The notes beneath the pieces were generated by a model. It worked only from the letters and a program-made list of their open reading frames with translations, was not told where the DNA came from and made no database searches. 64,000 nucleotides of DNA. Source: Diadema setosum. Taxonomy: Eukaryota > Echinodermata > Echinoidea > Diadematoida > Diadematidae. The position numbers and the translations under genes were made by a program. Every line of letters begins with the position of its first letter. The stretch's first letter is position 1. This document shows, in pieces, positions 32,415-54,739 of this stretch. Location of the stretch: positions 16,982,739 to 17,046,738 of the forward strand of contig CM067067.1 of NCBI GenBank assembly GCA_033980235.1, read 5' to 3'.

Positions 32415-32632
32415 ATTCGGATCAGCATAAGTCAATGAGGGGCAAAGTGACTGAGTTGATATTTTTGGAAGTGACATTATGACTGTATAACCTTACTCCA
32501 CTGAAATGAGATGGCAAGAAGCCACATCTTTTCTTTCCATACCCAAGCAGTCCGAGGAACAATGTATATTGTAGGCCTATATGTTCTAACAGATTAAATT
32601 TTTTATGATTGTATTATAGTCAGCTAGGCAAC

Positions 32633-34392: not shown

Positions 34393-34432
34393 GACTCTTT
34401 GATTACGTCGCCGCCGTTCGGTACGCGGGGCA

Positions 34433-35052
34433 GCGTATTTTTTATTTACACGCAAGCCTGTGGCTTTTCGCAATTTAATTCAATGAAACCGCTTGTGACG
34501 CGTCTATGCTTACTCCGCTCGGGTTGCGAAGAGTTCTGTGGGTTACACTTGTACTTGTACAGTGCCTCCGCTCGCGCCGATTCGATTCGTACACGTGCAT
34601 CAGTGAGTGTTTGTACGCGCTGTGAAAGTTTTGCTTGCCGTGCGTGGTAGACCTGCATCCAACAAGTCCATGTACGTACATTGTACTATGTAAACGAGTG
34701 AGAGTGCGAAAAACAAGACAATACAAAACAAAAAATTTGAAAGTTATGGAATAGGCTGGTACATGCATGTACATGTATCAGAGAGTTGTGAAATAACATG
34801 ATCGCTTAAATCTAATGACACCTGAATGGAATGAAATACTTTGGAAAATCATGCTTGCCATTTTTCTCATTTTAAAATTAATACATTGTATCAAAAGTAA
34901 TGTATTTGTCTTTCAGACCCCCCTCACTCTCTTATTTCCAAAACGTCTCTCTTCTCCCGTCTCTCCATACATCATAGTATTTGTTCCAAATACAAGCTCT
35001 CTCTATCTCTCTTGACTCCCTCTCACATGATTTCTGTTTCTAAGACCCCTTC

Positions 35053-35122
<70 letters not shown>

Positions 35123-36347
35123 CATTGTATGTACATGTATTAATGTTATTTCTCAGACCCCAACCCCCCTCTGTTATATCTGTTGCTATAATAAAGGCCC
35201 TACATCTATCTTCATACTGATGGTATATTCAAAGTTTTGTTTCTCAAACCTGCCCCGCTCTTTTCTTCATACTAGTTTCAAAGACTCACTCTTCATATTC
35301 ATTTTTCCGACCTCTCTCGACCCCTTCCTTTTTCAAATGCATGACTCGTGTATTCCTTGCTCGATCACTGCTTGAATTAGCCTATACAATTTATTTGTTT
35401 CTCATACTCTTTCTGTCCCTCCCCCTTCTCTCTTTCTGATTCTTAAACTTTACAATGTTTGTTTACAAGACCACTTTCTACTCTCTATATACATTGATCA
35501 GTGTTTGTCTAGAAACATGTACAGTCACATGTATGAAGGAAAATTACACCACTATTGCATGAAGTCATTATGCACTTTATTCACTTCTTTATATTCAAGC
35601 ACTTTTTTTTCTCGTGAAGGTACGGATGTAATCTGATCCTCCAATATCCAAGAAGTACTGTAATACAAACTAGAAGTATCACATAATGTGATTAATATAT
35701 ACCCCCAACTAGACACTGAGGCAGTTAGCTCAACTAGCAATGATTACTTTGTATGCTTTTCCTGGAAAAAAAATACCATGACCATGTATTGTTCAACATT
35801 GAATAAAATTAACAGTACAGTGTAATGTGTTATTTTGCTCACTCACAATAATGTGCCATATCTCAAGTCAAGTGCTCAAAACCTGAGTGAGTAAAGTAAA
35901 TAAATCAGCAATTTCTATGATTTTCATGAAAATAATGTTACCATGGCAACACAATGTTTGACATTAAGAAAAATAGAAGTTTGCAAAACTATAGCTGTCA
36001 CATGTGCCAAATTTCAAGTCAGATGCTCAAAAGCTGAGGGAGTTAGGTGAATTCACAATATCATTGTGTGATTTTCTTTCAAAATACGCTGTCATCACCA
36101 TGTTAGAGCTCACTAATGTCAACAATAATCGACCACTAATGTCATAACAACCACTAATGTGGTTGTCGCATCTTCAAGCTATATGCTTACTTGACGACAG
36201 TCTTCTGAATTTACACTCCCAATACATGTGCCATAATTCAGTCAGATCATTTGATTTTCTTTATTCCGAGTGGTTCCCAATCGATGTGTTCTCTTAGTCT
36301 TTTCTTTAATCTGTACACGTATATCTCAGTTTTATATTCGGATGTGC
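34433..36347. repeat. Left long inverted repeat of the 20-kb structure
   Basis: From 'gcgtattttttatttacacg' inward it shares, in reverse complement with 52187-54730, 'ctcgtgtattccttgctcga', 'cttgactccctctcacatga', 'accactttctactctctata' and 'atagctgtcacatgtgccaa'. It contains a (TA)n tract at 35057-35112. No coding frame is shared by both arms, so the arms look noncoding. Confidence 0.85.
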
Positions 36348-37793
36348 ACACTGCATGTTCCATTGTCTCGTTAACAAAAAGAAATGACTGTATTTCATTT
36401 TTATAAAATCATGATCGATGCAGAAAATTCTTCATAAATTCATTTGAATTTGGATCGTGCAATATCATAACAACCTCTAATGTCATAACACGTCGACGAC
36501 AAAATGTCGTAATGACCACTAATGTCATAACATGTCGACGACAATGTCAAAATCGGATTAACCACAAATGTCATAACACGTCGACGACAAATGTCAAAAT
36601 TCCCATTTTTGCTGCAAATGTCATAACACGTCGACCACAAAAGTCAAAATTTCCAAATTTACTGCAAATGTCATAACGCGTCACAGGGGAGGATCCAGGA
36701 ATTCCGTAAAGGGGAGGCGCCTTTAAAAAAGTAACCCCTCCTTCATTTTCTTTCTCTTTCTTTTTTTCTTTTAAACAAAAGAAATAAAACGAAAAAAAAT
36801 AAGGGGGATGGGGTTGCGCCAGCCTTTTATTTTGAAAGGTGTCTCCCCTTTACGGAACTCCTGGATCCGCCCCTGAAATGCAAGCAATGAGTTTTGACAT
36901 TTTTGGATGATGCAATCGCGAATCGACAGGGAGCGCATCCCCCTCTGGTGCCCCTTTCTATTCTTGTTAAAACAACAGAAGTAAAAAAAAAAAAAAAAAA
37001 TGGGGGCGGTGCGCCAGCTTGTACTTTTGTAGAGGGGCGGCGCGGCGCCCCCCTCCGTCTCTTATATTTTTGTTATAACAAAAAGAAATGAAATGAAATA
37101 AAATGAAGCTGGTTGCGTCAGCTTTTGATTTTGTATAAGGCGCCTCCCCTTTATGGAATTCCTGGATATTCCCCTGTGACACGTCATGACATTTGCAGTA
37201 AATTTGGAAATTTTGATATTTCTGGTCGAGGTGTTATGACATTTGTGGTTAATCCGATTTTGACATTTGTGGTTGACGCAATCGCGGATCGAGAGGGGGC
37301 GCTTCCCTCTCTTGTGCCCCCTCTCTATATTATTTTGTTAAAACAACAGAAATAAAAAGAAGAAAAGGGGGGTCACGCCAGTCTTTGATTTTGTAAAGGC
37401 GGCGTGCCGCCTTTACGGAATTCCTGAATCCTCCCCTATGACGCGTCTTGACATTTGCAGTAAATTTGAAAAATTTGACATTTGTGGTCGACGCGTTATG
37501 ACATTTTGTGATTAATTCGATTTTAAAGTTTGTCGTCGACGTGTTATGACAATTGTGGTTAATCCGATTTTGATAGTTGTCGTCGACGTGTTATGACATT
37601 AGTGTTATGGCCATTATGACATTTGTCGTCGACGTGTTATGATGATATTATAGTGGTTGTTATGACATTACACGATCCAAATTCAAATGAATTTATTAAG
37701 AATTTTCTGCATCGATCATGATATTACAAAAATGAAATACAGTCATTTCTTTTTGTTTACAAGAGAATGAAACATGCATTGTGTACATCCGAA
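36337..37793. repeat. Inner palindrome with GTCGACGACAAATGTCA units
   Basis: Arms of about 350 bp: left 36337-36690, right about 37440-37793. Both carry degenerate tandem 'aatgtcataacacgtcgacg' units and end in mirrored 'catgatcgatgcagaaaatt' / 'aattttctgcatcgatcatg' and 'aaagaaatgactgtatttca' / 'tgaaatacagtcatttcttt'. The centre repeats 'ggcgcc...tttacggaattcctg' blocks. The outermost ~40 bp of each arm is RT-like sequence, so homology runs into the neighbouring RT fragment. Confidence 0.8.
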
Positions 37794-37958
37794 TCTAGTC
37801 TTGAAGTTATTAAATGTGGCGTCCCTCAGGGTAGTACATTAGGACCTTTACTTTTCATCATTTACATAAATGATTTTTGTAGATCATCCGACATACTTTC
37901 TTTTATACTTTTTGCCGATAATTCAAATATTTTCTTCTCCCACCAAAATCCAATTACT
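37746..37958 (+). pseudogene. Non-LTR retrotransposon RT fragment (5' piece)
   Basis: The frame contains GVPQGSTLGPLLFIIYINDF and then SFILFADNSNIF, the RT block with the F/YADD motif changed to FADN, so the last catalytic Asp is lost. Architecture resembles CR1/Jockey-group RT. The frame breaks at 37958 where a 12.8-kb insertion starts; the next residues of the same protein appear at 50787. Upstream RT blocks and the endonuclease are absent, replaced by the palindrome. Confidence 0.85.
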
Positions 37959-37984
37959 CTACACACAGAGAAATTACGGTTCTA

Positions 37985-38590
37985 ATTTGCACCCTAGAGG
38001 GTGCATATCGTTGTAACACCAGCGGCTCCATTTAGGGTTCTATTTTGGGGGGTGCTTATTTAGCACCCTATATTCAACACCATATATGGTGCATATTTGC
38101 ACCCCTCCATTGGGTTCCCTTTTGCACCCAATAGGGTTCATATCGTTGTAACACCAGCGGCTCCATTTAGGGTTCTATTTTTGGGGGTGCATATTTAGCA
38201 CCCTATATTTAACACCAGATATGGTGCATATTTGCACCCCTCCATTGGGTTCCCTTTCTGCACCCCATAGGGTGAACAAAAATCCAGGTGCAAATTTGCA
38301 CCCTTTCTGGTTCATATCGTTGTAACACCAGCGGCTCCATTTAGGGTTCTATTTTAGGGGGTTCTTATTTAGCACCCTATATTCAACACCCTATAAGGTG
38401 CAAATATGGACCTCTATACAGGGTTCCCCTTCTGCACCTCATACCTGCACCCATTATGGTTCATACTGTTATTGTTGTAATTTTGCACCCTATGGGGTGA
38501 TAAAGTCACCGCAATATAGGATGCAATACAATTTGCACACGTCTCTATTTAGGGTTACCTTTCTGCACCCCATATGGTGAAAATTATAAC
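37985..38590. repeat. Left subterminal tandem repeats with GCACCCTATAGGGTGC words
   Basis: Units of ~135-174 bp starting 'atatcgttgtaacaccagcg' at 38005, 38140 and 38314, each with 'ctccatttagggttctattt' and 'tttgcacccctccattgggt'. The right end of the element (50641-50786) has related 'gggtgcaaataagaacccta'. Likely terminal binding-site clusters of the element. Confidence 0.8.
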
Positions 38591-40198
38591 CTTTTTTTTT
38601 TTAAACCAAAATAATTGTATACTGGATGCATTCACTGACTTCACAAACAATTACCTAAGGTAACACTCCAGACATGAAGCAAAATAGCATGCATAGATTT
38701 ACACACAGTTTCTCAGTCAATTAAATCCACAATCTTTCGAAAACTGAAGTCAGAGACTTCAATTCAACAACAAATAGAACATAAACATGATGAATACATT
38801 GCATACTTACATATAAATTATTAACATTTTATTATATGTCTCATGGAAGAGGGACAAGTTAACAGCGATTTTCTTTTTCATGGTTTACTTTAAAATGAAC
38901 ATCAAATATACATTGTATTTCTACAAATTCTCATACGAGATGCATATTTTGTCATAAAAAGGGCAATGTAAATAAAAAATGTATGAAATTTGGTCAGTAC
39001 ATTGAATAAGAAGAAAAATATTCGTTCTTTCCATCAAATGATTACTTTTTCTTCTTTTAAAGGAAGTTACCACATTGACAAAAAGCAATAATTCTTTTTA
39101 TACAAAAAAATCCCTAAAGCTTGTGCAGAGTAATAGTAATCTATGTGACAAATATCTTTCACATTGTCCTTCTACTTCTAGAATGGATCATAGATATGTA
39201 CCTCGAATTTACCGGTACATGTTACGGTAATCAAAAGCACCTTTATGACGCTCTTAGACATTAACAGCGATATGTCAACTCTGATTTCTCGTACACAAGT
39301 TATTGCCAAAACAATGAAGGGTATGGCAAAGTTCTGTCATTATTATATTTGAACTCACTACTTGTACTGACATATTCCATCCAATTCCAAGCTTGAGAGC
39401 TTGCGAATGTGCCCCATTATACAATTAGTATACTTCACATTTTGTTTTTCATATACAATTACACCAATGATAAGAAAGGTGAAAAAAAAGAATAAAAAAA
39501 TGAAGAATGCACATCTAAATTTGGTAACTTTTTTATGCACACAGCTAAAGATATGTCCCAGTTATAAATCTCGGGCAGAATAGCACATCTGAAAACACTT
39601 TTCATTGCATCAAATTAACATTAACAATTCCACAGAAAATGTTACCTCAGAAAGGGAAAATAAGGTTGACCAATCAGTGGTATGACAAACTGGACATAAA
39701 GAGGAAGGAATATGTCTTCAGTGAGACAAGTTTAAAAATAATTTTTTTTTTTTGATACATTGGTTTTTTTTTTTCCAAGCGATGGAAACAAGAAGCACAT
39801 TGTACTCAGTAGACCATAAATATAATTACACAATGTATGCAGTTTAGCCCCAACATTCAAAACATTGTAAAGAGCAGTCGATTTTTCACATTTATGAAGC
39901 AGGTATTGGTATTGGCACCATCACAAGCATAATGATCAGGAGCAAAATATATTATTATTACTATTAACATCATTATTATTCCTATTATTATTATCATCAT
40001 CATTATTATCATTATTACTATTACCATCAATATTTTACAGAGATTTATGATCATGCATGAGAAATACCTCAAGTGTTGATGTTACAGTCTCACAACTCTC
40101 CCAATCATCTAACACTTAATTTTCACCAAACCTTACACAAATATATCAGCACTTTATACAACCTACTTAAAGAAAGCTTGAAATTATAATCAGAGTTA
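38591..40198. other. AT-rich interior of the 12.8-kb element
   Basis: No transposase-like frame. A degenerate (ATT/ATC)n tract at 39950-40030. Open frames here are short and low-complexity. Confidence 0.45.
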
Positions 40199-40900
40199 GA
40201 GGGCAAGTCCACCTTCATATAGACCTACATGTGGATTGAGTGAATGCGCAGCAATAAGCCAGTCCGGAGATAGCTCATGTGCACATAGGTACAAATGACC
40301 TTTCATTTTTCTCAGTTGGTTAGGCACTTCACTCAATGCAACGTGACATAATGCAGCAGCTTGCCCACCATAGCCATTTATGGAACTCATATTCAAACAA
40401 AGAATGAACCTAACCAGTGTAGATGAAGTGACCAGTATGGTTCGTCAATCAACACTTAGGGAATCATCTATTTTATTAAGTGCTGTCTTGAATATGTTAA
40501 CAAACATTTTGTGTGTGCTAACATTGCCAAATACCAGGCTTGCTGTCAAGTGGATGTACTGGCAGGCACCATTTATAAGGATTCCACGAATAATCCTAGC
40601 ATTACACATGCTTATCTCAGTGAAATAAAAAAAAAAAAAAAAAAAACCTGTCTCTCGGTACAAATAACCTTTTTCTGCACATGCTCAAACTGGTACCCCA
40701 AACTGGCTTATACTATTAGAACACATCAGAAAAAAATTGAAAAGCGGACATTCAGTTCAAAAGTTAATAATCTTTAAATCATTTGTGCAGTTGCAGCGGA
40801 GTGAGAAGAGTTTATGATGTCACATGCGTAGAACAATTCAAGGAAAACCTAAAAAGAATTTCATTTTTTTTTCTTTTAGGAAAAACATGCAAATTTCCTT
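40199..40900. repeat. Fold-back repeat family FB2, interrupted copy
   Basis: 'gagggcaagtccaccttcat' and 'gattgagtgaatgcgcagca' (40199-40252) continue after an insertion with 'agaacacatcag', 'cagttcaaaagttaat' and 'tgatgtcacatgcgtagaac' (40711-40840). The right half is truncated. Confidence 0.6.
40254..40706. mobile_element. ~450-bp TIR element inserted in FB2
   Basis: Left end TAAGCCAGTCCGGAG with 'catgtgca' nearby; right end, reverse-complemented, TAAGCCAGTTTGGGG with 'catgtgca'. It replaces the point where FB2 copies read 'gcaatat.agtagaacac'. Noncoding, with a poly-A at 40627-40645. The TSD may be TA or TTA; uncertain. Confidence 0.45.
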
Positions 40901-40937
40901 GACAAGTCACTGACGTATGTAAGGAATTGATATATTG

Positions 40938-41098
40938 GTCACTACATAAAAAGGTTTATTTTTAAAGTTATGGTCAAAAGAAGCAAAAATTTTCCTATTA
41001 TTCTCTTTATTTTTCTTGACCTTTAATCGCAAATATCTCCATTTGGCAAATATGGACTTATCGGTTTTTGCAAACAAACTCTTCATATGTTGAGCTTT
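40938..41098. repeat. Truncated copy of hairpin element at 59277
   Basis: 'ggtcactacataaaaaggtt', 'agttatggtcaaaagaagca', 'cttgacctttaatcgcaaat' and 'atggacttatcggtttttgc' match 59382-59532 closely; the left TIR is missing here. Confidence 0.7.
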
Positions 41099-41929
41099 CT
41101 GAGGTTTTGGAACAAACTCTATTTTTCAATCCTTATATACATAAAGGGTTTGTGAGAAAATCATGCTTTTGTCAAGTGTCACAAAGCTACTCCACTTATG
41201 ACATTGCATTGCCAGAGATTGCCCAAAATTGACATACATTTTGTGGCTGTCTACTACAAAAAACAGCAGGCGACTTATTTTTTTTTTTTTGTTCCCTACT
41301 TAAACAATCAATTCAAAGTGTGCATGTGTTGTTTGAAGCACTGAGGCTATCGATGGTGAAGAAATAACTAAAATATGAACAATACAAACTAACCCCATCT
41401 AGTATGAAATATATTGGAAAGCAAACTTTGAGTATTTCATATCCATTAGCAGATTCATATTTTCATCCATAATCCACCCTCCCCCTCCAAAAAAAAAAAA
41501 GAAGATAAAAGTGAATGGAAGTCAAGTTCTTTTTAGACTGTGTTTAAATTTGTAATTTGCAAGTTCGTTCTCTTGTATTTTTCTATTATATATTTCTTTA
41601 GAGTATTCTTGTTAATATTCAAGGCCAGTGCATTCTAAGAAAGGGAATAACCTGACAACAGTTTAGAAGACAGAATAAATAGTTACTGTTATCTATGATA
41701 TTAGACATTTTCACATATATTTTGCAAAAAAAAAAATGCTAATCTTCATTTCATGGAGTGGATTTATTCTCACCCTCGGCTAAAAACAGGGAGGTGATTA
41801 CTTTCTGGATTAAAATGGAAAGATGTTTCTAGAGCCGTGGTGTTTAGCAATTCTAATGGGGGGGGGGGGGATTCAATGTGGCCCGTCTCAAATTTTATAT
41901 GGTTTAAACATACATGACATATAGGAGTC
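41099..41929. other. No gene seen
   Basis: AT-rich; poly-A tracts at 41489 and 41727 and poly-G at 41859-41870. No exon or transposase. Confidence 0.4.
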
Positions 41930-42105
41930 TCATTATTATGCCTCCGCCCTGAATGGTGCCGGAGGCATATGTTTTCAGGTTGCCTGTCTGTCTCCCGGTC
42001 TGTACGGATGTATCTACAGAAAAATTGATGGGCTTTCATCAAACCTGGATCAGGGATAATACATGATGCTGATGATCTTATTTTCTTTTGCACTATATCT
42101 GCTAA
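41930..42105. repeat. GCCTCCGCC...GGAGGCAT dispersed repeat end
   Basis: 'attatgcctccgccctgaat' and 'ggtgccggaggcatatgttt' form a hairpin and lead into 'tctgtctcccggtctgtacg', a common motif order in marine-invertebrate interspersed repeats. 'taatgcctccagcacccatc' at 61247 is a fragment of a similar end. It abuts and truncates the gag-like frame. Confidence 0.5.
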
Positions 42106-42108
42106 AAG

Positions 42109-42574
42109 TCAAAGAAAATTTGAAAATAACTTTTTTGCTAATTCTCTAGTCAGGGAAATCGGTGCACTCGCGTGTACTGGTTGGTTGGCCCATTCATTTG
42201 GGTACAGCAAGGTTTCATCCTCTGCTTTCACAGGAAAGCCGACTCCCAACTTCTTGTTCTCGTAGTCAAGGTATATCTGCTCCTCTGCTTCAGCAACCTG
42301 CAGCATGGTCTTCATAGCTAATCTCATCTTACGCTGCATAAGTCGAAACTCCTCGAGCTCTAGTTTTTGATGCGTTTCTATAGCAGCTGCTTCAGCTGCC
42401 AAATAGTATGCCCTTCTGGCCATCACTCTCAGAAGAACTGGCATGGCTTCCACACTGACTCAACCAGGAACCAGGATTGACATCCTGAACATCTTCCATC
42501 TCCAGCTCTGGCATCCTATATGGCTCATCAGTCTCTCGAGGTTGACCTGCATCACTCATCCTGAAGACCATCAT
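42109..42574 (-). pseudogene. Gag-like retroelement remnant, frameshifted
   Basis: Two overlapping minus-strand frames: 42574-42392 is acidic and Ser-rich (MSDAGQPRETDEPYRMPELE...), and 42453-42109 is an Ala/Glu/Lys-rich helical segment (AAEAAAIETHQKLELEEF, then QVAEAEEQIYLDYE). One frameshift near 42415 links them. An Ala-rich coiled coil with AEAEE is typical of the N-terminus of Pao/BEL-type gag in invertebrates, but there are no LTRs, capsid or zinc knuckle here, and the 3' side is cut by a repeat. A host gene is less likely. Confidence 0.45.
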
Positions 42575-43218
42575 TGAACTTCATGCACAGTGAACTCGAT
42601 GATAAATAATCAATCAAACACAGGTCCCTTTGGCCCAGTATGAGACCAAGCTAACACCATGCATCAGCATGGATCAGCAAGGTTCAACCTGTAATTGAAT
42701 AAAACAAAGTTCAACGTACAATCAATATTGGAATATCTACCTGCTAAAGTATGGGATCAAGTATTTGTACTTCTGAAGTGATTTACCGTTTACATACCTT
42801 GTTTGTGTGACTTATTTTATGTCATGTCTAGCACATGCAACTTCTCCAGTGGATATTATCTAAATCCACATATCGTGTATCATTGCTTATGCTCTGTGAC
42901 TATGGCATTGCTAATTTATAACACATTCTATTTTCATTGATAGACAACAAGGAGTCAAGGCCAACCTAAATTTTCTGACTTCAATCTTCATACATGTCTT
43001 AAATTCTCCTAAATGAACCAGGAACACTATTTTTCTTCATTAGGCACATCATACATGCCTACATCGTTCTTTCTGTAAACTTCACAGAAACCAATATCCA
43101 ACTGAGCCTCAACTCGGCTCAAACGTAATAATTCCCATTAACGAAAATGATGCGACTATAACCGGTCACCTATTTACGTACGTACTGTACCTTAGTAACT
43201 GCGTCCAGCAGCCCCATA
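42575..43218. other. No gene seen
   Basis: Sequence between the gag-like remnant and the Gypsy element; ends with CCATA, the target site of the Gypsy insertion. Confidence 0.4.
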
Positions 43219-43403
43219 TGTTATGTCATGTACTAATTGACATATACTCGGATGTACACCAAATTGTAATACTGAGTGGAGAGGCTCAGAGACACTCATG
43301 GGCACAGAGCTACGTCAAGTATTGCTCCTAAATAAATGTCTCGTAACTGCTGAATCACGCCTGTCAAGGAATTATTCTTTGTGTCAAGGATGACAACATA
43401 ACA
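43219..43403 (+). repeat. 5' LTR of the Gypsy element
   Basis: TGTTATGTCATG ... GACAACATAACA, 185 bp with TG...CA ends and a short TGTTATG/CATAACA terminal inverted repeat. 'cctaaataaatg' could serve in polyadenylation. Identical to 49729-49913. Confidence 0.97.
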
Positions 43404-43420
43404 TGGTGGCAGCTGCGGGA
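43404..43420 (+). promoter_or_regulatory. Primer binding site of the Gypsy element
   Basis: TGGTGGCAGCTGCGGGA starts at the first base after the LTR. TGG pairs with a tRNA CCA end; I did not identify the tRNA. Confidence 0.7.
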
Positions 43421-43426
43421 TTGGAA

Positions 43427-45785: not shown

Positions 45786-46654
45786 TTAATCTTGTTTTTG
45801 AGGAACTCTCAAAATTACGACTGAAACTGTTTTTGGAAACACGAATCCAGACTTGGTACTGCACCGATGCGTCGCCTCTCCCACAGTCTAGTGACCGCAT
45901 CACTGTAGCACTGCATCGTCTGTGCTATCCCTGGAACTACCGTGTTGTGCCTATGCAAATTCAAGTCTCCCGCATACGCGGACTAATATGCGTCAGCGTT
46001 GAATCGAACACTCGACTCGTAAACTGAAAAAGTGACAAATTTGGAAACTCTTGAAACTTCACCCCGCTTTTTTTGGCCCTATTGTGTGAGTTTATGGACG
46101 CTTTCCGGCACGCAAAGGGTTCATTTCGTATAGCCTACATGCAAAGATCAATGTTATAAGGATTTTGTGCTCGTTTCGCCAAAGAAAGCCGTCATACTGA
46201 GTGAGTTTCGGACGCTTTCCAGCACGCAAGTGAGTAAAACAATTCCATATCTACGGATGATTTTCGCTGCTACGGAATAAACTGCATTGTTTCGACTCTG
46301 CATTGGAATGTTTTGTCCTTGATGGAATGATGTTTTGCAAACCTGTTCTGTCTCGGGATGTGTGACACTGACTGAGTTAAATAATGGTTTTGGACGCTTT
46401 GCAGCACACATCCAAGACAAATTTTGCTACCTCCACACAGGTTAGTCTGTAAAACAGCCGTTCTCATGGCTAGTCCAAACTAAGTTACTGCCAAAGTTAG
46501 TGAGAATAATCTGACATTTTGACACTATCGCCGATCGGTACTGGCAGCCCAGTTGAGAACGCATCGACGTACGTGACGTTGATGAGCAATCGAATCGGAG
46601 CTGAAGCCTTATGAAGGAACTATTTTCTGCCGTTCAAGCAACAAACGTTGCTAG
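45786..46654. other. Gypsy leader remnant with GGACGCTTT repeats
   Basis: No gag frame. Three spaced copies of a motif: 'atggacgctttccggcacgc' (46095), 'cggacgctttccagcacgca' (46209) and 'tggacgctttgcagcacaca' (46392). Higher GC than the surrounding DNA. The junction to pol at about 46652-46660 is a deletion breakpoint preceded by an in-frame TAG. Confidence 0.6.
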
Positions 46655-48898
46655 GACAACTGGCGACGGTACTGTTTCAAGAGACTTCCCTTCGGGCTAA
46701 ATGTGTCGCAAGATATATTCCAGGCAAAGATGGACGTGATCTTGGAAGGATGTCCTGGTGTCATAGGAATCGCCGACGACATTGTAGTCTTTGGCTCCTC
46801 CGAAGTGGAGCACGACAACAACCTGCATAGACTCATGCAGAGAGCACGTGAATACGGACTAGTGTTCAACCTAGACAAGTGTGACATCAAGATCGCCTCT
46901 GTCAAGTTCTTTGGGTGCTACTATGATGCAAATGGCATCCACCCTGATCCTGAGAAAGTGGCCAGCATCAAGGCACTGTCTCCCCCTCAGAATGTGAAGG
47001 AGCTACAGCAATTCCTCGGAATGGTACAGTACCTTTCACCATTCTTTCCCCACTTAGCTGATCTGACAGCAGACCTCCGGGATCTCACCCGCAAAGACAG
47101 AGAATGGCAGTGGTCAAGTTCGCACCAGATGGCCTTCGAGACTCTCAAGAAGAAAGTTGAAGAGCTTACAACTCTGACATACTTCGACCCATTGAAGCCG
47201 ACAGTCATCCAAGTAGACGCATCACAGAAGGGCCTAGGAGCCGCCCTCCTTCAGGACAACAAGCCTGTTGCCTTCGCGAGCAAAGCATTGTCCCCTACCG
47301 AGCAACGGTATGCCAACATTGAGCGTGAACTACTAGCAGTAGTCTTTGGATGCACACGTTTCCACACATATGTGTTTGGATCTAGGTTTACTGTCGAGTC
47401 AGATCATAAACCTTTGGAGAACATCCAGCACAAGAATCTTGCTGACACCCCACCAAGACTCCAAAGGATGATGCTAAGGCTTCAACCGTATGATGTCCAC
47501 ATCATGTACCGTCCAGGAAGCACGATGCTACTTGCTGATGCACTCTCGAGATTGAGCCCAATCTCAGGACAGACCCTGGACATAGAAGAGACAATCCATG
47601 TCATACACTGCTCTGACACAAGGCTCCAAGAAATCAAAGAGCAGACCCTGCAAGACAAGACCATGAGTTTGCTTGCCACGACAGTGATAGAAGGATGGCC
47701 CGAACACGCACGGGATCTACCCAAGGAGATCAGGAATTTTTGGTCTTGCAGAGACTCCCTCTCTATCGAAGATGGCATTCTCATGAAGGGAGACCGGATC
47801 TTCATACCCCCACGGATGAGGAAGGAGGTCCTAGAGAAAATCCACATTGGACATCAAGGCATAGTCAAGTCGCAAGCATATGCACGTTCGTGTGTATTCT
47901 GGCCTGGCATAGACAAAGATGTGGAGAATATGACTCGCTCCTGCACTCAATGCCAAGCACACCAAAGAAGACAGTCTGCGGAACCACTCACAAACCATGA
48001 GGTACCCCAAGGCCCTTGGAAAGTTGTCGGTACTGACCTGTTTCACTTCCGTAACGACGAATACTTGATCATCGTGGACTACTTCTCTAAGATGCCGTTT
48101 GTTAGGAAATTACCTGCCCGGTACTCAAGTGTGGCTGTAATCCGCCTGACAAAGGCAGTATTCAGTGAGCATGGAATCCCAGAGAAAGTGATAAGTGACA
48201 ATGGGCCACAATTCTCTAGTGAGGAATACAAGAGATTCAGCCAATCCTGGGGATTCACACATGTCACCTCTAGCCCACACTATCCCAGAAGTAATGGTCA
48301 AGTTGAGAGAGCAATACAAACTGTGAAAGCAACCCTGACCAAAGCTAGAGAAGGCGGCCAAGACGAGTTCCTAGCCATGCTCTCCATCCGCAATACCCCC
48401 ATAGATAGCAAGCTTCCGCCACCTGCAGAAATACTGTACAGGAGGAAGTCTAGAAGTGCACTGCCTGTGAAAGACACTCTGAACCGTGTCAACATACCAG
48501 ACAACGATGAGATCCGCCAGATGCTTTGTGACCGTCAATCCAAGCAGAAAGAAAACCATGACGTACGCGGTACAAGGAAGCTGCCGAGCCTAGAGATAGG
48601 GCAACAAGCTACTATGAGGGACAGCAGAACATGACTGTGGACACCGGTGGTCGTGAAGGACGTATGTGCCGAACCAAACTCCTACCTGGTACAGACCCCC
48701 AATGGGCACACACTGCGCAGAAACCGTAGTGACCTGAGAGACCTTGGTACCACAAAAATGCGGGTCCACTTTGCCCCCACCCCTGAAATCTTGACACCCC
48801 AGAAAAGCCAGTGTAAGAACACCCCTGACAAACCAGGTGTATACACTACTAGAAGTGGTCGCACTGTAAGACCACCAAAGAGACTTATCACAGAGTAG
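46655..48898 (+). pseudogene. pol: Gypsy pol, C-terminal part (RT end, RNase H, integrase), one internal TGA
   Basis: Numbering from the GTG codon at 46703. RT-like FKRLPFG lies just upstream (46676-46696), then IADDIVVFG (23-31) holds the two catalytic Asp. RNase H 167-240 has D172, E207/E209 and D234. Integrase has the HHCC finger (H381, H384, C414, C417) and the DDE core D445, D499, E535 with 35 residues between the last two. These catalytic residues are intact. TGA at 48632-48634 stops the frame; the same frame continues to 48898 with an integrase C-terminal segment (LRRNR..., TRSGRTVRPPKRL). There is no initiation codon of its own, and earlier pol is deleted, so I call it a pseudogene although RNase H/integrase could fold if expressed by readthrough or fusion. 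Confidence 0.93.
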
Positions 48899-49728
48899 CA
48901 AACACATACTCTGCTTTGTAAATACTGTTTTATGTGTTAAGAATAGCCCTTGTGACTATTCCATTTTTAACTGAAAATTATTTGTTTTGAGATGCATGAG
49001 GCAAAGCACTTCAAGTTATTCACATCTATGGAAAAAGGGAGAAGTTATGTGGTGTAAACTTTGAAACTTACTGACATAACGTGACAATATAACACCCAAT
49101 TCTGAGATATACATGTTAGTCAGACCTGTTGATAGAAGTGCATATTGACTTCATGAGTTAACCGAATTTATGAAAGCTAATTCTTATGAGCATTCAATTG
49201 TGATAATAAGCTATGTGTGTATACAATGTATGAAATTACCATAGTTCACTCTAGCTTCACCTGTAAATAGTATAGATTGAACTTTTGGCATGCTATAACA
49301 TACTAGAAATGAGTAAAAGCTCTTCAGTCTACGCATTTTGGAATTAGTCAAAATTAATACAGTCTTTAATCAATCCTTATGTATCAGTCACAAGAGCAAT
49401 ACTAGTGATATATGTGCATGCAATTAGTTTATTCATTTTAGGCAATGAATTTACTTCAGACAATGTGGAATTGTTACAGTACTGAAGATAATTGCTTTAA
49501 TAACAGGTCACAGATAAGTTGCTTTTAATACAACATGCAAGTTGCTATTTCATATAAATATATTGAACTTGCATATGTGTCACATTCAATGGCAGATACT
49601 GTATAAATGTTACACGGTGTTACGATCAAGATACCAACTTGGCGTTCGTTGAATAGAATGTGTTTTCTAAAGTTGAGCAGTTATTCTGACTCGGTTAAAG
49701 ACCTCTTCTTCTTTGTTGAGAGAGGGGA
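48899..49728 (+). other. Gypsy 3' noncoding region and polypurine tract
   Basis: About 820 bp of AT-rich sequence without frames, ending in GAGAGAGGGGA (49718-49728) directly before the 3' LTR, which would prime plus-strand synthesis. Confidence 0.75.
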
Positions 49729-49913
49729 TGTTATGTCATGTACTAATTGACATATACTCGGATGTACACCAAATTGTAATACTGAGTGGAGAGGCTCAGA
49801 GACACTCATGGGCACAGAGCTACGTCAAGTATTGCTCCTAAATAAATGTCTCGTAACTGCTGAATCACGCCTGTCAAGGAATTATTCTTTGTGTCAAGGA
49901 TGACAACATAACA
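49729..49913 (+). repeat. 3' LTR of the Gypsy element
   Basis: 185 bp, TGTTATGTCATG ... GACAACATAACA, no difference from the 5' LTR seen by eye, followed by the CCATA duplication. Confidence 0.97.
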
Positions 49914-49918
49914 CCATA

Positions 49919-50640
49919 CGCATAGCGTAATTACGCTGTGCATATGGGGCTGTTGGTCGTAGTTAGTACCTTGGTTGAGGCTTTTCGTATTAACGTGCAC
50001 TTTCATTGACTTATTCGCTATGCTTTACTGTATGTATGATCGCACTTCTGACATGTTAGTACACATGTACCTCGATACAACTCTTTCGCATCAGTTTTCA
50101 CCACTCAGCATTCTATATGCATGATTCACACATATCATCGATTACTGTGAAATATTTTCAACGGAATTACAGTACAATTATCTACTCACAACGTTTGGCT
50201 CATCAAAAAGATTAATTCATCATCCAAACCTCACGGTCGTCTGTCCATTTCAAACGAGGAACGTCAGTAGTATGCACGTACGTATACCGCGCGACCTACG
50301 GCGTGGCGTGCGCATGCGATTTTAGCTTTGCCATTGACCAAGTGCTCAACGGTCCACGCGTGCACGCATAATACGTGTACTTGTACTCGTTTGCTTTCTC
50401 TCTATGATAACGTCATTGAAATTATATTCTTGATCCCGGTGCGAGAAGAAAAAACAAATGTTTAATTCAAGTAGTAATTTTTTTAGTACAGTATTACTGA
50501 TGACACTGTCACTCTTTAACAACGTGTAGTTATATTTTCAAATAAAAATATACGATAATATCCAAAAATAGTGTGGCATTTTAAGCAAACACCATTCAAC
50601 ACCCACATGTCAGCTTTCGGGAAAGACTATGGAATGGTTC
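49919..50640. other. No gene seen
   Basis: Interior of the 12.8-kb element to the right of the Gypsy insertion. CG-containing stretch at 50270-50370; no exon or transposase found. Confidence 0.4.
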
Positions 50641-50786
50641 CAAATTCGAACCCTTAAGACTTGGCTCCCTTTAGGGTTCGGATTTGCACCGCTACATCCA
50701 TCCCGAACCCTATAAGGTGCAACTTAGTTAGATTTGCTCGTAGGGTGCAAATAAGAACCCTAATAGAACCCTAATTTCTCTGTGTG
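50641..50786. repeat. Right subterminal region of the 12.8-kb element
   Basis: Contains 'ctccctttagggttcggatt', 'aaccctataaggtgcaac' and 'agggtgcaaataagaaccct', related to the left subterminal repeats, then the TIR TAATTTCTCTGTGTG. Confidence 0.75.
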
Positions 50787-51690
50787 TACTGTTAATTCCG
50801 AATTAAAAAAAGTGACTCAATGGATAAGAGCCAACAAATTATCACTGAATCTTCAGAAAACTAACTATATGTTATTCAGTAAGTCTATAGAAGTTTTACC
50901 CACAGATATCATCTTTGATGACGTTCACTTAGAGCGTGTATCTCATACAAATTTTCTCGGTATTACAGTGGACGATAAACTTTCGTGGAAGCCTCATCAA
51001 TTATTATTAATATTAGTAAAATAATTTCGCGTAATATTGGTATTATTAATAGACTTAAATCTCATATCCCGTTGTCTTCTTTGCTGACGTTGTATTTTTC
51101 ATTAATATTACCTTATTTAAATTATGGAATCTTAGCATAGGGTATAGTGCCCATCAAACTTTATTAGATAGATTATTGTTATTACCAAAAAAAAAAAAAA
51201 GAAGGCACTTCGTATTATTTGTGGCGTTTCTCCACGTTCCCATGCAGATCCATTATTTGTTAGATAAGATTTAAAAAATCAAAGATTTGTTTTTCTTACA
51301 GCTGGGTCAGTTTATGTTTAATTATAACACAAATGCACTTCCCAGCATTTTTTATTCAATGTTTCCCGAAATCAATATTTTCATAATTATCTCATCAGGC
51401 GATCAAATGAGTTTCATTTACCCCTTCTGAGAACATTATTGGCTCAAAATACATTTATATACACTGGCCCTAGATTTTGGAATTCTTTAAGTTGTGATAT
51501 AAAAAAAAATGCTTTATCTTTGAATTCGTTTAAGCGTAAGTTAAAATATTTTTTGTTTAACTCATATTAAGATATATACGATTCATTACTTAGCTGGTCT
51601 TTACAGCCTATAAGGGTTCATCGTCAATCATTGATTTCATCATTGTGTATTTTTTACATTATCTTATTTGTATACACTTTGCTCGGCTGA
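50787..51690 (+). pseudogene. Non-LTR retrotransposon RT fragment (3' piece)
   Basis: It continues the fragment ending at 37958: ANKLSLNLQKTNYMLF and FLGITVDDKLSWKPH are RT thumb-region motifs. After about 51005 the frame shifts (ISKIISRNIGIINRLKS) and shifts/stops recur (poly-A 51187-51201). Later pieces, ALRIICGVSPRSHADPLF and FIYTGPRFWNSL, are the usual C-terminal CR1/Jockey-type motifs. Clearly inactive. Confidence 0.85.
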
Positions 51691-52186
51691 CTGGGCTGAA
51701 ACACCTCAATTCCCTCTTACGATCCCGATGTTTAGCGTGTTGGCTTTTCCTTTCATTTCCTTTTTCTTTCTCTCCTTCCTTTCCATTATTCTTTTGTGTT
51801 TTATTACTGTCATTGTATACCCTACTATAAAGTCATGTAATGTCGTTGTGTTTCTATTGTCTTGTTCTGTCCTGTCTTGTTCTCTCCTGTCTTTGTAAAA
51901 AAAAAAAAAAAAGTTTAATGTATTCACAAGAATCCTTTAAGTGGTTCACAATTTAAAAGCATGCTTTTCAGTGAACCTCTCAGTTCTTTTTTTTTCCCCC
52001 TCCAAACATAATTTTGTATTCTGCCGGTATGCATGTATAATTTCCTATTTGTTGACCCGCATTATCTACCATGTATAAAGTCGAATACATGCCTATGTTA
52101 TATCTTCTGATTCATTTCGTGTTATGTTTGACGAAAAAGAAAGAAGGAATGAAATAAATGAAATGAAATGAAAAAGAAATGAAATG
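51691..52186 (+). mobile_element. 3' UTR and AAATG-rich tail of the same non-LTR element
   Basis: T/C-rich UTR, poly-A at 51897-51913, then 'gaaataaatgaaatgaaatg' repeats (52151-52187). It stops exactly where the right long inverted repeat begins. Confidence 0.6.
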
Positions 52187-53726
52187 AATATAAAATTTAT
52201 ACGTGTATCGACAGATTAAAGAAAAGAGTATGAGAGAACGAGTCGATAGGGAACCACTCGGAATAAAGAAAATCACTGACTGAATTAACGGAGTGTATAA
52301 ATGCAGAAGACTGTCGTCAAGTAAGCATATAGCTTGAAGATACGGCAGTCACATTAGTGGTTGTTATGACTCTACTGGTCGATTATTGTTGACATTAGTG
52401 GGCTCTACACATGGTGACAGCATATTTTGGATGAAAATCTTATGCAATAATATTGTGAATTCACCTAACTCCCTCGGATTTTGAGCATTTGACTTGAAAT
52501 TTGGCACATGTGACAGCTATGACATATAGTTGTGCAAACTTCATTTTTTCTTAATGTCAAACATTGTGTTGACATGGTAACAGTATTCTTAATGAAAATC
52601 ATAGAAATTGCTGATTTACTGACTTTACTCACTCAAGTTTTGAGCACTTGACTTGAGATATGGAACATGTGACTATCAGTGAGCAAAATAACACATTATT
52701 GTTAATTTTATTCAATGTTGAACAATTGTCATAGTATTTTTTTTTTTAAAGAAAAGCATATAAACAAAGTGATCATTGCCTGTTGAGCTAACTGCCTCGT
52801 TGTGTTTAGTTTTGGGGATATTAATCACATTGAGTGATAGTTCTAGTTTGTATCACAATACTTCTTGGATATTGGAGGATCCGATTACATCTGTAGTAAA
52901 CCTTCATGAAAAAAAAAGTGCTTGAACATAAAGAAGTGAATAAAGTGCATAATGACTTCATGCAACAGTGGTGTAATTTTCCTAGATAACATGTGACTGT
53001 ACATGTTTCTAGACAAACTGATCAATGTAGAGAGTAATAAGTGGTCTTGTAAACAAGCATTGTAAAGTTTAAGAATCAGAAAGAGAGAAGGGGGAGGGAC
53101 AGAGAGAGTATGAGAAACAAATAAATTGTATGATAGGCTAATTCAAACAGTGATCGAGGAAGGAATACACGAGTCACGCATTTGAAAAAGGAGGGGGTCC
53201 GAGAGAGGTCGGAAAATGAATATGCAGAGTGAGTCTTTGAAACTAGTATGAAGAAAAGAGGGACAGGTTTGAGAAACAAAATAATATACCATCAGTGTGA
53301 TGAAGATAGATTTGGGGGCCTTTAATAGCAACATATATAACAGGGGGTTGGGGTCTGAGAAATAAAGTTAATACATGTACATACAATGTACAGTATAGAG
53401 GGGGTCTTGAAACAGAAATTATGTGATATGAGAGGGAGTCAAGAGAGATAGAGAGAGCTTGTATTTGGAACAAATACTATGATGTATGGAGAGACGGGAG
53501 ATGAGAGACGTTTTGGAAATAAGAGAGTGAGGGGGTCTGAAAGACAAATACATTACTTTTGATACAATGTATTAATTTTAAAATGAGAAAAAAGGCAAAC
53601 ATTTTCCAATGCATGATGATGTTTGTTCCATTCAGGTGTCATTAGACTAAGCGATCATGTTATTTCACAACTCTCTGATACATGTACATGCATATGTACC
53701 AGCTATAGCCTATTCCATAACTTTCA

Positions 53727-54135
53727 ACTACTCTCCCTTCAAGCTTTCCATCCATGCTCTTCTTCTTCTCCACTCATTTTCCCTTCAATCTTTCCTGTGA
53801 ATATCTAAATTATCAATCAACGGAGATGGAAAAAGTGTTACATTATATACTTACATTCTGTTAGATTACTAGTCATGTGTAGGCCTATTATGTCGTTATG
53901 CGTTTCAATATTTTTTTTTTTTTTTGGGGGGGGGGGCAGGATTGGCTTCACCGTCAGTCCCTTCCCCCCAACAAATCAGTAAACGCAAACATGTAGGCCT
54001 ACAATTTACAAAGGCGAAAAATGACCATCTAAATGTAATTCTTTGGGAGTATGCTCAGCGCCCCTACCATCCCTTTAAAAATCACTCCAACCTGTATATA
54101 TATATATATATATATGAATATAAATAAATAAATAA

Positions 54136-54178
<43 letters not shown>

Positions 54179-54191
54179 TATAAATAAATAA

Positions 54192-54234
<43 letters not shown>

Positions 54235-54245
54235 TAAATAAATAA

Positions 54246-54298
<53 letters not shown>

Positions 54299-54466
54299 TC
54301 GGTCAGTGTAGCCCATCTTATACACCCCCATCATACACATTGGTCTTCCATGGAATATTGATCACTTTTGTGCAGGTTTGATGAGATATCACAGAATATT
54401 CATTGCTTATTTTTTATCTCTTTCCTTATGATTCTCTCTCTCCCCCTCTCCTCCTGGTCAGATTTT
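53727..54466. other. ~740-bp block present only in the right arm
   Basis: The left arm runs directly from 'ttggaataggctgg'-type sequence to 'gcgaaaaacaagac', whereas the right arm has this block between 'ccataactttcaa' and 'tttttttgttttttgtattg'. It contains T-run/G-run 53910-53936 and long (TA)n/(AAAT)n. Either an insertion on the right or a deletion on the left. Confidence 0.65.
54097..54297. repeat. (TA)n with interspersed (AAAT)n
   Basis: Three blocks of (TA)n separated by 'gaatataaataaataaataa', a higher-order repeat of about 60-65 bp. Confidence 0.95.
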
Positions 54467-54739
54467 TTTTGTTTTTGTATTGTTTTCTTTTTCGCACTCT
54501 CACTCGTTTACATACGTACATGTACTACTTGGATGCAGGTCGACCACGGCGAGCAAAACTTTCACAGCGCGTACACACACTCACTGACGAACGTGTACGA
54601 ATCGAGCGGAGGGTTCAGTGAACTCTTCGCAACCAACAACCCTCGTGGAGTAAGCATAGACGCATCACGAGCGGTTTCATTGAATTAGATTGCTAAAAGC
54701 CACAGGCTTGCGTGTAAATAAAAAATACGCGTTCGGTAC

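What the first reader, a model, noticed from the sequence alone, without database searches (positions are those of the whole stretch)
34416..54739. ~20-kb structure with ~1.9-kb inverted termini and 9-bp flanking duplication
Two arms ~16 kb apart are reverse complements over nearly 2 kb with an ordered series of matching blocks, and GTTCGGTAC sits outside both ends. Noncoding long TIRs plus a ~9-bp duplication resemble Mutator-like or Foldback elements; the size and lack of a transposase are unusual. It may be an undescribed non-autonomous giant TIR family.
Basis: partly seen in the sequence, partly recalled or inferred. Interest (0 to 1): 0.8.

Follow-up and report, generated by a model that had tools for sequence, protein, structure and literature searches.

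The report
Sea-urchin jumping element with long ends
The 20-kb structure is one copy of a repeated 7.5-kb jumping DNA element of a sea urchin, swollen by a second mobile element and a retrotransposon that landed inside it; its family almost always inserts at a short C-any-G site, which is the one unusual thing about it.

Summary
Window 34433-54730 is a copy of a multi-copy DNA transposon family of Diadema setosum with the tip GCGTATTTTTTATTTACACG. The tip occurs 190 times genome-wide at up to 2 mismatches, against 16 for the reversed pattern. Of 41 copies examined at both ends, 27 are flanked directly by an identical 9-bp duplication; among 30 of them, pairing flanks of different copies gave none in 870. 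The duplications share a strict centre: C at base 4 and G at base 6 in 27 of 27. No transposase gene was seen in the element.

The "giant" size is secondary. The element's own length is 7,471 bp. A younger 6-kb transposon (37962-50786, 2-bp duplication) sits in its middle, and an LTR retrotransposon (43219-49913) sits inside that. Nine of 10 other copies show the empty site.

The driver is most likely a Mutator-like (MULE) transposase. This is supported but not shown: one locus with the exact tip holds two exons of a MULE gene, and a mobile-looking 5' segment of a MULE gene ends in a related terminus with the same target motif. A P-type transposase is the main named rival. New member of a known kind: non-autonomous, Foldback-like, long-TIR element.

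The parts
34416..34424 (+). left copy of the 9-bp target duplication GTTCGGTAC, displaced 8 bp from the tip
   Evidence: read directly; fits the family target motif NNNCNGNNN
34425..34432 (+). 8 extra bases GCGGGGCA between duplication and left tip; origin unexplained
   Evidence: of 8 places with octamer plus tip at up to 2 mismatches only the window is exact; the nearest other has 1 mismatch
34433..36340 (+). left terminal inverted arm (L arm), tip GCGTATTTTTTATTTACACGCAAGCCTGTGG; contains a TA repeat 35053-35122
   Evidence: L arms of 11 copies agree at 97.4% on average
36341..37961 (+). element centre, first part: inverted and tandem 46-50 bp repeats, then the start of a captured LINE reverse-transcriptase fragment (37722 on)
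   Evidence: main blocks about 89-98% identical to other copies; RVT_1 E 1.2e-7 on 37722-37985
37960..37961 (+). TA, left copy of the 2-bp duplication of the nested element
37962..50786 (+). nested younger TIR element (termini CACACAGAGAAATTA[G/C]GGTT); about 6.1 kb of its own plus the LTR element
   Evidence: 40 of 40 scored places per end (window included) 98-100% identical, all starting at the same terminal base; 2-bp duplications identical in 10 of 10 pairs; empty site in 9 of 10 other long-TIR copies
43219..49913 (+). LTR retrotransposon inside the nested element; 185-bp LTRs 43219-43403 and 49729-49913, 100% identical; flanked by CCATA on both sides
46655..48634 (+). open frame (659 aa, stop to stop) of the LTR element: RT, RNase H, integrase; described only
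   Evidence: Pfam RVT_1, RT_RNaseH, Integrase_H2C2, rve
50787..52184 (+). element centre, second part; begins with the right TA copy and carries the rest of the LINE fragment
   Evidence: junction against the empty site in other copies
52185..54730 (-). right terminal inverted arm (R arm), tip at 54730; about 740 extra bases at 53728-54464 with a TA repeat 54095-54298
   Evidence: R arms of 11 copies agree at 96.7% on average; copy c7b lacks the extra stretch exactly and c19 lacks most of it
54731..54739 (+). right copy of the 9-bp target duplication GTTCGGTAC, directly at the tip

Best explanation
The structure is one copy of a non-autonomous, cut-and-paste (or gap-repair amplified) DNA transposon family in the genome of the sea urchin Diadema setosum. 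A transposase supplied in trans recognises the tip GCGTATTTTTTATTTACACG at the outer ends of two long arms, which are related but distinct (L about 1.9 kb; R 1.8-2.6 kb in 10 of 11 copies, 3.5 kb in one). It joins the element to a target cut with a 9-bp stagger centred on C-N-G (best fit NNCCSGGNN), giving the 9-bp duplication. Copies move as whole L-centre-R units. The centre carries a captured LINE fragment and no transposase that I could find. The 20-kb size of this copy comes from two later insertions, a 6.1-kb TIR element and, in it, a 6.7-kb LTR retrotransposon. Shown: repeat family, ends, duplications, target motif, unit inheritance, nesting. Inferred: that a transposase acts in trans, and that it is of the MULE (Mutator-like) type.
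For: (1) Copies with the same ends: 40 scored candidates each for L and R arms, window included; 190 tips against 16 in the control. (2) 27 of 41 copies have an identical 9-bp duplication directly at the tips; among the 30, 21 agree over 9 bp, none over exactly 8, one over 10, and 0 of 870 mismatched pairings are identical. One more (L097) shows the same 9-mer one base off. (3) C4 and G6 in 27 of 27 duplications and in 76 of 82 flanks, against 6 of 120 9-mers further out. (4) L-L 97.4%, R-R 96.7%, L-R 91.7% whether in one copy or in different copies; the arm tree pairs the same copies on both sides in three cases. (5) Nesting: 9 of 10 other copies show the uninterrupted site, two words of 19 and 16 bases at up to 3 mismatches each; the nested family has 40 of 40 scored places 98-100% identical and 10 of 10 identical 2-bp duplications; LTRs identical over 185 bp. 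(6) MULE link: locus L103 has the exact 31-base tip and, 1.1-1.65 kb inside it, two consecutive exons matching sea-urchin MULE proteins at about 50-70%. The 5' segment of a MULE gene (PF10551) exists in two 98-99% copies on C1 and C2 whose shared upstream border is GCGCGTTTCCGTTTTACACC..., 26 of 39 bases identical to the family tip (20 of 20,000 random 40-mers do as well, 33 with GCG fixed). Both its flanks have C4 and G6, though the C1 flank is also the flank of a family copy and so not independent. 9 bp lies in the usual MULE range (PMC5225508, PMC6446971, passages read).
Against: No copy with a complete transposase was found. 120 MULE-family proteins found no match in the window or in any fetched family locus except L020 (the C1 MULE gene, which is not inside a tip pair) and L103 (36 sequences searched). 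Other transposase types were not tested that way. L103 was fetched because of a P-type hit: it holds a fragment of a P-type transposase (PF21787) and a weak THAP match below cut-off, its MULE piece is only two exons, its second tip was not found, and the 9 bases outside its tip do not fit the C4/G6 rule. The other border of the duplicated MULE segment is not an inverted repeat, and in C1 a C-terminal exon of the gene lies beyond that border, so that segment was not shown to be a complete element; the MULE gene may be a host gene (97% identical in Diadema antillarum). The strict target motif is not what two studied animal MULEs show (Muta1 and Tm1: no preference; passages read). 14 of 41 copies lack an identical adjacent 9-mer, the window among them. 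The 30 later copies were chosen for exact tips.
Confidence: 0.78

Rival explanations
1. Same element, but moved by a P-superfamily (THAP-type) transposase, as the Foldback-like element Galileo is in Drosophila. The palindromic, GC-rich target would fit P better than MULE.
For: A P-type RNase H fragment and a weak THAP match lie 2.3-3.3 kb inside an exact family tip. Galileo is a P-superfamily element (PMC4168063, search listing and start of abstract; PMC3169594, passages). That P elements prefer GC-rich palindromic 8-bp targets is recalled.
Against: P-superfamily duplications are 7-8 bp (recalled), here 9. With 48 P-type hits and about 190 tips, one hit this close inside a tip is expected about 1 time in 20 to 40 (my estimate). 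In L103 the RNase H piece precedes the THAP-like piece, and MULE exons lie closer to the tip.
Confidence: 0.1
2. Same element, moved by a transposase of some other or undescribed superfamily that has a strict C-N-G target.
For: No complete autonomous copy was seen. The target rule (27 of 27) is stricter than for the two animal MULEs whose papers were read in part. All MULE evidence is indirect.
Against: Tip similarity to the MULE-segment border, MULE exons inside a locus with the exact tip, 9-bp duplication.
Confidence: 0.17
3. A native ~20-kb giant TIR family.
For: One other tip pair is 20.8 kb apart (C7:20893847-20914636); its inside was not read.
Against: Most convergent pairs listed are 4-13 kb apart; 9 of the 10 other copies read have centres of 2.5-5.0 kb and one 7.6 kb; the extra 12.8 kb of the window is a separate family with its own ends, and 9 of 10 other copies have its empty site.
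Confidence: 0.01
4. A one-off inverted segmental duplication or an assembly error.
For: None found; reads were not available here.
Against: 41 copies read at both ends, 27 with identical duplications in different flanks; 190 tips. The assembly is from HiFi reads of mean length 8,449 bp.
Confidence: 0.01

Closest known systems
Tetris (Drosophila virilis), PMC4079207 (passages read)
   Same: Non-autonomous, Foldback-like, TIRs up to 1,735 bp, 8-10 bp duplications, variable noncoding middle, no autonomous copy found; assigned to Mutator from duplication length and precedent.
   Different: Tetris arms contain tandem repeats and are rearranged, with 3 structurally complete copies; here arms are mostly not tandem repeats, 41 copies were read at both ends, the duplication is 9 bp and has a target motif.
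Tm1 of root-knot nematodes, a Mutator/Foldback family, PMC3169594 (passages read)
   Same: Foldback-like TIRs, mostly 9-bp duplications, non-autonomous copies plus a rare MULE-encoding element.
   Different: Tm1 elements in the passages seen are about 1-2 kb, with 8-10 bp duplications and no target consensus; here long arms and a strict C-N-G centre.
Muta1 of Aedes aegypti, an active MULE, PMC5225508 (passages read)
   Same: 8-9 bp duplications, many non-autonomous derivatives with the autonomous ends and other sequence inside.
   Different: TIR 145 bp, transposase present, no sequence preference at insertion.
Transposon of the sea urchin Strongylocentrotus purpuratus (Lieberman 1983, 'TU' elements; title seen only in the reference list of PMC4079207, details recalled)
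   Same: Sea-urchin DNA element with long inverted termini.
   Different: Recalled: 8-bp duplication and an outer domain of 15-bp tandem repeats; no sequence comparison was made here.
Rehavkus / FB-NOF (MULE-NOF), PMC6446971 table (passages read); the link of FB to NOF recalled
   Same: 9-bp duplication, MULE-related.
   Different: Reported TIRs of 26-400 bp, a PHD finger and a minisatellite; host phyla listed are Arthropoda and Annelida.

Membership tests
Class II (DNA) TIR transposon | Multiple copies ending at the same base in unrelated flanks | tested here: met
   of the 11 copies not chosen by tip, 9 have both tips exact, one differs in the last base (c22c) and one has a replaced right end (c22a)
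Class II (DNA) TIR transposon | Terminal inverted repeats | tested here: met
Class II (DNA) TIR transposon | Fixed-length target duplication | tested here: met
   27 of 41 copies, 9 bp
Mutator-like (MULE) superfamily | 8-11 bp duplication | tested here: met
   9 bp; range from PMC6446971
Mutator-like (MULE) superfamily | Element, or an autonomous partner with the same tips, encodes a MULE transposase | tested here: inconclusive
   two MULE exons inside one locus with the exact tip, related terminus at a MULE gene segment; no complete coding copy; no MULE match in the other family loci
Mutator-like (MULE) superfamily | Terminal similarity to a known MULE | tested here: inconclusive
   26 of 39 bases with the C1/C2 MULE-segment border, about 1 in 600 to 1 in 1,000 by chance
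P superfamily (Galileo-like Foldback) | 7-8 bp duplication (recalled) | tested here: not met
   9 bp
P superfamily (Galileo-like Foldback) | P/THAP transposase in an element with the same tips | tested here: inconclusive
   RNase H fragment and a weak THAP match below cut-off in L103; no complete gene; other family loci not tested for P-type coding
Foldback elements (structural class) | Long inverted termini, often with internal tandem repeats | tested here: met
   1.9-2.5 kb arms; inner 46-50 bp tandem repeats in inverted orientation in the centre; folding itself was not computed
Maverick/Polinton | 6-bp duplication and a set of viral-like genes (recalled) | tested here: not met
   9-bp duplication; of the window frames scanned only retrotransposon-type ones scored over cut-off

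The most novel reading that the evidence does not exclude
A long-TIR DNA transposon lineage whose transposase reads the target itself: a 9-bp stagger centred on an invariant C-N-G within a CCSGG-like palindrome. This would be a sequence-specific branch of the MULEs, or a separate transposase lineage, rather than the loosely targeting MULEs described in insects and nematodes.
Probability: 0.3. Interest if true: 0.55.

Novelty: new member of a known kind. Interest (0 to 1): 0.38.

Why it matters
It explains a striking 20-kb inverted structure as three nested mobile elements of different ages and gives a sea-urchin genome with 25.87% unclassified repeats a well-bounded family. If the C-N-G target rule holds for the active transposase, it is an unusual case of strict target choice by a 9-bp-duplication element, and a handle for finding its transposase.

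Tried and rejected
Rejected: native giant family (empty sites of the nested element); one-off inverted duplication (multi-copy ends); PF20700 'Mutator' elements as partner (53 hits, none inside the tip pairs listed, which lists only part of the tips; the one fetched, L041, has other termini). The inverted pair of copies around the MULE gene on C1 as one composite element: outer and inner flanks do not match as a duplication (by eye). Pattern search for tips with a different 21st base was badly designed and uninformative. An own-genome COX1 search to name the host returned a protist-like contig instead. Searching papers for a host tandem repeat by its letters found nothing; papers on TU elements with inverted repeats: 0 held; papers on 9-bp MULE target preference: 2 listed, neither opened.

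Limits: only 100 of the 190 tips were listed, all exact. The 30 pairs are convergent exact pairs from C1 to C13; I left out pairs already read, the nested group at C4:2.66 Mb, the 27.9-kb pair at C7:25.24 Mb and unpaired tips; pairs on C15 and beyond were not taken. Only the best 39-40 candidates per DNA search were scored, so copy numbers are lower bounds. In one search the exact junction string was found in c22a and 5 of 6 other loci; one search repeated this with mismatches allowed for all 10 copies (9 found, c7a not).
Full report
WHAT IS THERE. The window lies at C9:16982739-17046738 of an 885,718,524-base genome in 96 contigs. Several contig lengths reported by the fetch calls (45,525,403; 43,371,471; 42,816,929; 38,257,702; 37,598,940) equal scaffolds of the published Diadema setosum assembly; others and the total differ slightly (885,842,048 bases in 101 scaffolds there; PMC11066563, passages read). 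The host is that sea urchin. Two arms, 34433-36340 and 52185-54730, are reverse complements in ordered blocks. The right arm is longer by about 740 bases that include a TA repeat. Both tips read GCGTATTTTTTATTTACACGCAAGCCTGTGG.

IT IS A MULTI-COPY ELEMENT. Searching the genome with the left arm scored 40 of 1,498 candidates, with the right arm 40 of 1,614, the window's own place among them. The 20-base tip occurs 99 times forward and 91 reverse at up to two mismatches, against 6 and 10 for the pattern read backwards; the 100 places listed are mostly convergent pairs 4 to 21 kb apart. Ten copies besides the window were fetched with their flanks. Of these 11, nine have both tips exact, c22c differs in the last base of one tip and c22a has a replaced right end. 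The tips of 30 more convergent exact pairs were then fetched (selection told in Tried and rejected).

DUPLICATION AND TARGET. Six of the first 11 copies and 21 of the 30 others have an identical 9-mer directly outside both tips. Among the 30, two more agree at 8 of 9, two at 7 of 9, and one (L097) shows the same 9-mer one base off. Among the 30, pairing the left flank of one copy with the right flank of another gives 0 identical 9-mers in 870 and 2 at 8 of 9. The 27 identical duplications all have C at position 4 and G at position 6. Position 3 is C in 21, position 7 is G in 20, and position 5 is C or G in 24. Read on both strands the motif is NNCCSGGNN. Of all 82 flanks of the 41 copies, whether or not they match each other, 76 have C4 and G6, against 6 of 120 9-mers further out on the flanks of the 30. 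Exceptions: three left flanks and three right flanks, among them the window's left flank. There the duplication GTTCGGTAC, which fits the motif, stands 8 bases away from the tip, with GCGGGGCA in between. Of eight places where octamer plus tip match at up to 2 mismatches only the window is exact, so its origin is open.

THE ARMS TRAVEL TOGETHER. Over 11 copies, left arms agree among themselves at 97.4% on average (55 pairs) and right arms at 96.7% (55 pairs). Left and right arms agree at 91.7%, whether in the same copy (11) or in different copies (110). In the tree of the 22 arms the left arms form one clade (support 1.000), and three groups recur on both sides: window with c22a, c15 with c22c, c1a with c10. 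So left and right arms diverged before this family spread, are not being made alike by conversion within copies, and each copy moved as one unit.

THE CENTRE. Ten other copies have centres of 2.5 to 7.6 kb (nine of them 2.5-5.0 kb) that match the window in two pieces, 36341-37961 and 50787-52184, in main blocks of about 89-98%. The centre holds tandem 46-50 bp repeats arranged as inverted repeats and a LINE reverse-transcriptase fragment (RVT_1 E 4.5e-10 in copy c22a, 1.2e-7 in the window), found in all 11 copies and in 4 of 12 further centres. These 12 stretches of 3 kb comprise four of the same type (L030, L037, L038, L039; 2,825-3,000 of 3,000 bases alike), four with about half the bases alike (L029, L031, L033, L035) and four diverged or interrupted ones (L032, L034, L036, L040). 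None of these 23 centres matches any of 120 MULE-family proteins (36 sequences searched, matches only in L020 and L103), and no long transposase-like frame was seen in the frame lists. They were not scanned systematically for other transposase types.

THE SIZE IS SECONDARY. Nine of the 10 other copies read CCAATCACTCTA|CTGTTAATTCC or a close variant (c7a was not matched) where the window has 12,825 extra bases, 37962-50786. These begin and end with CACACAGAGAAATTA in inverted orientation and have a TA on both sides. Both ends find their own family: 40 of 40 scored places, window included, start at the same terminal base at 98-100% identity. Ten pairs that I chose from these lists are 6.0-6.4 kb long and show identical 2-bp duplications in 10 of 10, six of them TA. 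Other pairs in the lists are longer, for example 13.1 kb on C7. Within it lies an LTR retrotransposon, 43219-49913, with two identical 185-bp LTRs and CCATA on both sides and an open frame with RT, RNase H and integrase matches. The order of insertion agrees with the divergences: about 3% among the long-TIR copies, 1-2% between the window's nested copy and its family, 0 of 185 between the LTRs. The long-TIR element's own length is 7,471 bases.

HOW IT WORKS. Same ends, one duplication length and no visible transposase mean a transposase acting in trans (inference from the standard behaviour of TIR elements). Which one? A MULE domain search found 14 places, one between two family copies on C1 but inside neither. 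A P-type search found 48, one 2.3 kb inside an exact tip on C2. That locus (L103) carries the 31-base tip, about 75 bases of related terminal sequence, then a 321-aa frame that I read by eye as LINE and mariner-like remains (no Pfam match), then two consecutive exons of a MULE gene with their intron (matches of about 50-70% to sea-urchin MULE proteins; residues 17-60 and 60-129 of P0001), and further in a P-type RNase H fragment (E 1.8e-7) and a THAP match below cut-off. Because L103 was fetched for its P-type hit, the MULE exons in it are a finding after the fact; its other tip was not found, and the 9 bases outside its tip do not fit the C4/G6 rule. The MULE gene on C1 has its 5' part repeated at 98-99% on C2. 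The shared segment stops upstream at GCGCGTTTCCGTTTTACACCTTGGCCTAGGCTTTTC, which is 26 of 39 identical to the family tip (reached by 20 of 20,000 random 40-mers, by 33 with GCG fixed). The 9 bases outside are ATCCGGGCA in C1 and GCACTGGGC in C2, both with C4 and G6. In C1 those 9 bases lie exactly between the MULE terminus and the tip of family copy c1b, so this flank is shared and not independent evidence. Against this reading, the other border of the segment is not an inverted repeat. In C1 a last exon of the gene lies beyond it, so the C2 copy may be a truncated one, and the gene may be a host gene. It is 97% identical to a Diadema antillarum protein and belongs to a family, many members with PF10551, found among others in echinoderms, molluscs and fishes (195 proteins at E <= 0.001, the best 120 listed). 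My estimate: MULE about 0.7, P type 0.1, other 0.2, given a trans-acting transposase.

COMPARISON. Passages of four papers were read for the comparison. Tetris of Drosophila virilis is the closest in kind: long TIRs up to 1,735 bp, 8-10 bp duplications, no transposase, placed in Mutator without an autonomous copy. Tm1 of nematodes shows that Foldback-like TIRs with 9-bp duplications can belong to MULEs; it has no target consensus. Muta1 has no sequence preference either. The survey PMC6446971 states MULE TIRs of 14-500 bp in the elements it analysed and duplications of 8-11 bp. Here the arms are longer and the target stricter. A sea-urchin element with long inverted termini was reported in 1983 (title seen in a reference list only); its relation to this one was not tested.

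VERDICT. Real, ordinary in kind, well bounded. The strict C-N-G target and the missing transposase are the points worth a specialist's time.

Noticed in passing
window 37962-50786; other copies e.g. G000:C9:38615129-38621134: A young family of about 6-kb TIR elements (termini CACACAGAGAAATTA, 135-bp tandem repeats near one end at 37986-38443), about 100 candidates in the genome, 40 of 40 scored places 98-100% identical, 2-bp duplications in 10 of 10; no Pfam match over cut-off in the few frames scanned outside the LTR element. Looks recently active and non-autonomous.
   Followed up: partly
window 34425-34432: Eight extra bases GCGGGGCA between the left 9-bp duplication and the left tip of the window copy; they resemble the family's target motif. 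Possible relic of a second event at the tip.
   Followed up: partly
L042 (G000:C67:34364-36028): Both COX1 matches of the assembly lie on this contig, read TGA as tryptophan and span a long insert; it looks like a protist (ciliate-type, recalled, not tested) mitochondrial gene, so contig C67 is probably contamination.
   Followed up: no
L041 (G000:C16:6953000-6959499): A PF20700 'Mutator' element with an open 521-aa frame, 23-bp inverted repeats TTAAGGGTGTAGTACTGGTATTC 3.9 kb apart, and a second place with the same score on C18: another probably recent transposon.
   Followed up: no
C1:35158066-35167487 and C2:21183027-21192224 (L020, L019, L104, L105): The 5' part of a MULE gene is duplicated at 98-99% between chromosomes 1 and 2, with a TIR-like upstream border and target-like flanks; the gene is 97% identical in Diadema antillarum.
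   Followed up: partly
window 28070-32415: Large arrays of an 85-bp tandem unit (TGACTGAGGGAGATGCTGACCCC...), GC-rich against their surroundings.
   Followed up: no
C4:2659851-2677259: Two forward and two reverse exact tips within 17 kb: family copies nested in or next to each other; adjacent insertion may be favoured because the duplication is itself a target site.
   Followed up: no
copies c22b, c22c, c15 at the site of the nested element (L017, L021, L025): Three related copies read CTCTATAACTG instead of CTCTACTG exactly where the nested element sits in the window; could be an old footprint or a plain variant.
   Followed up: no
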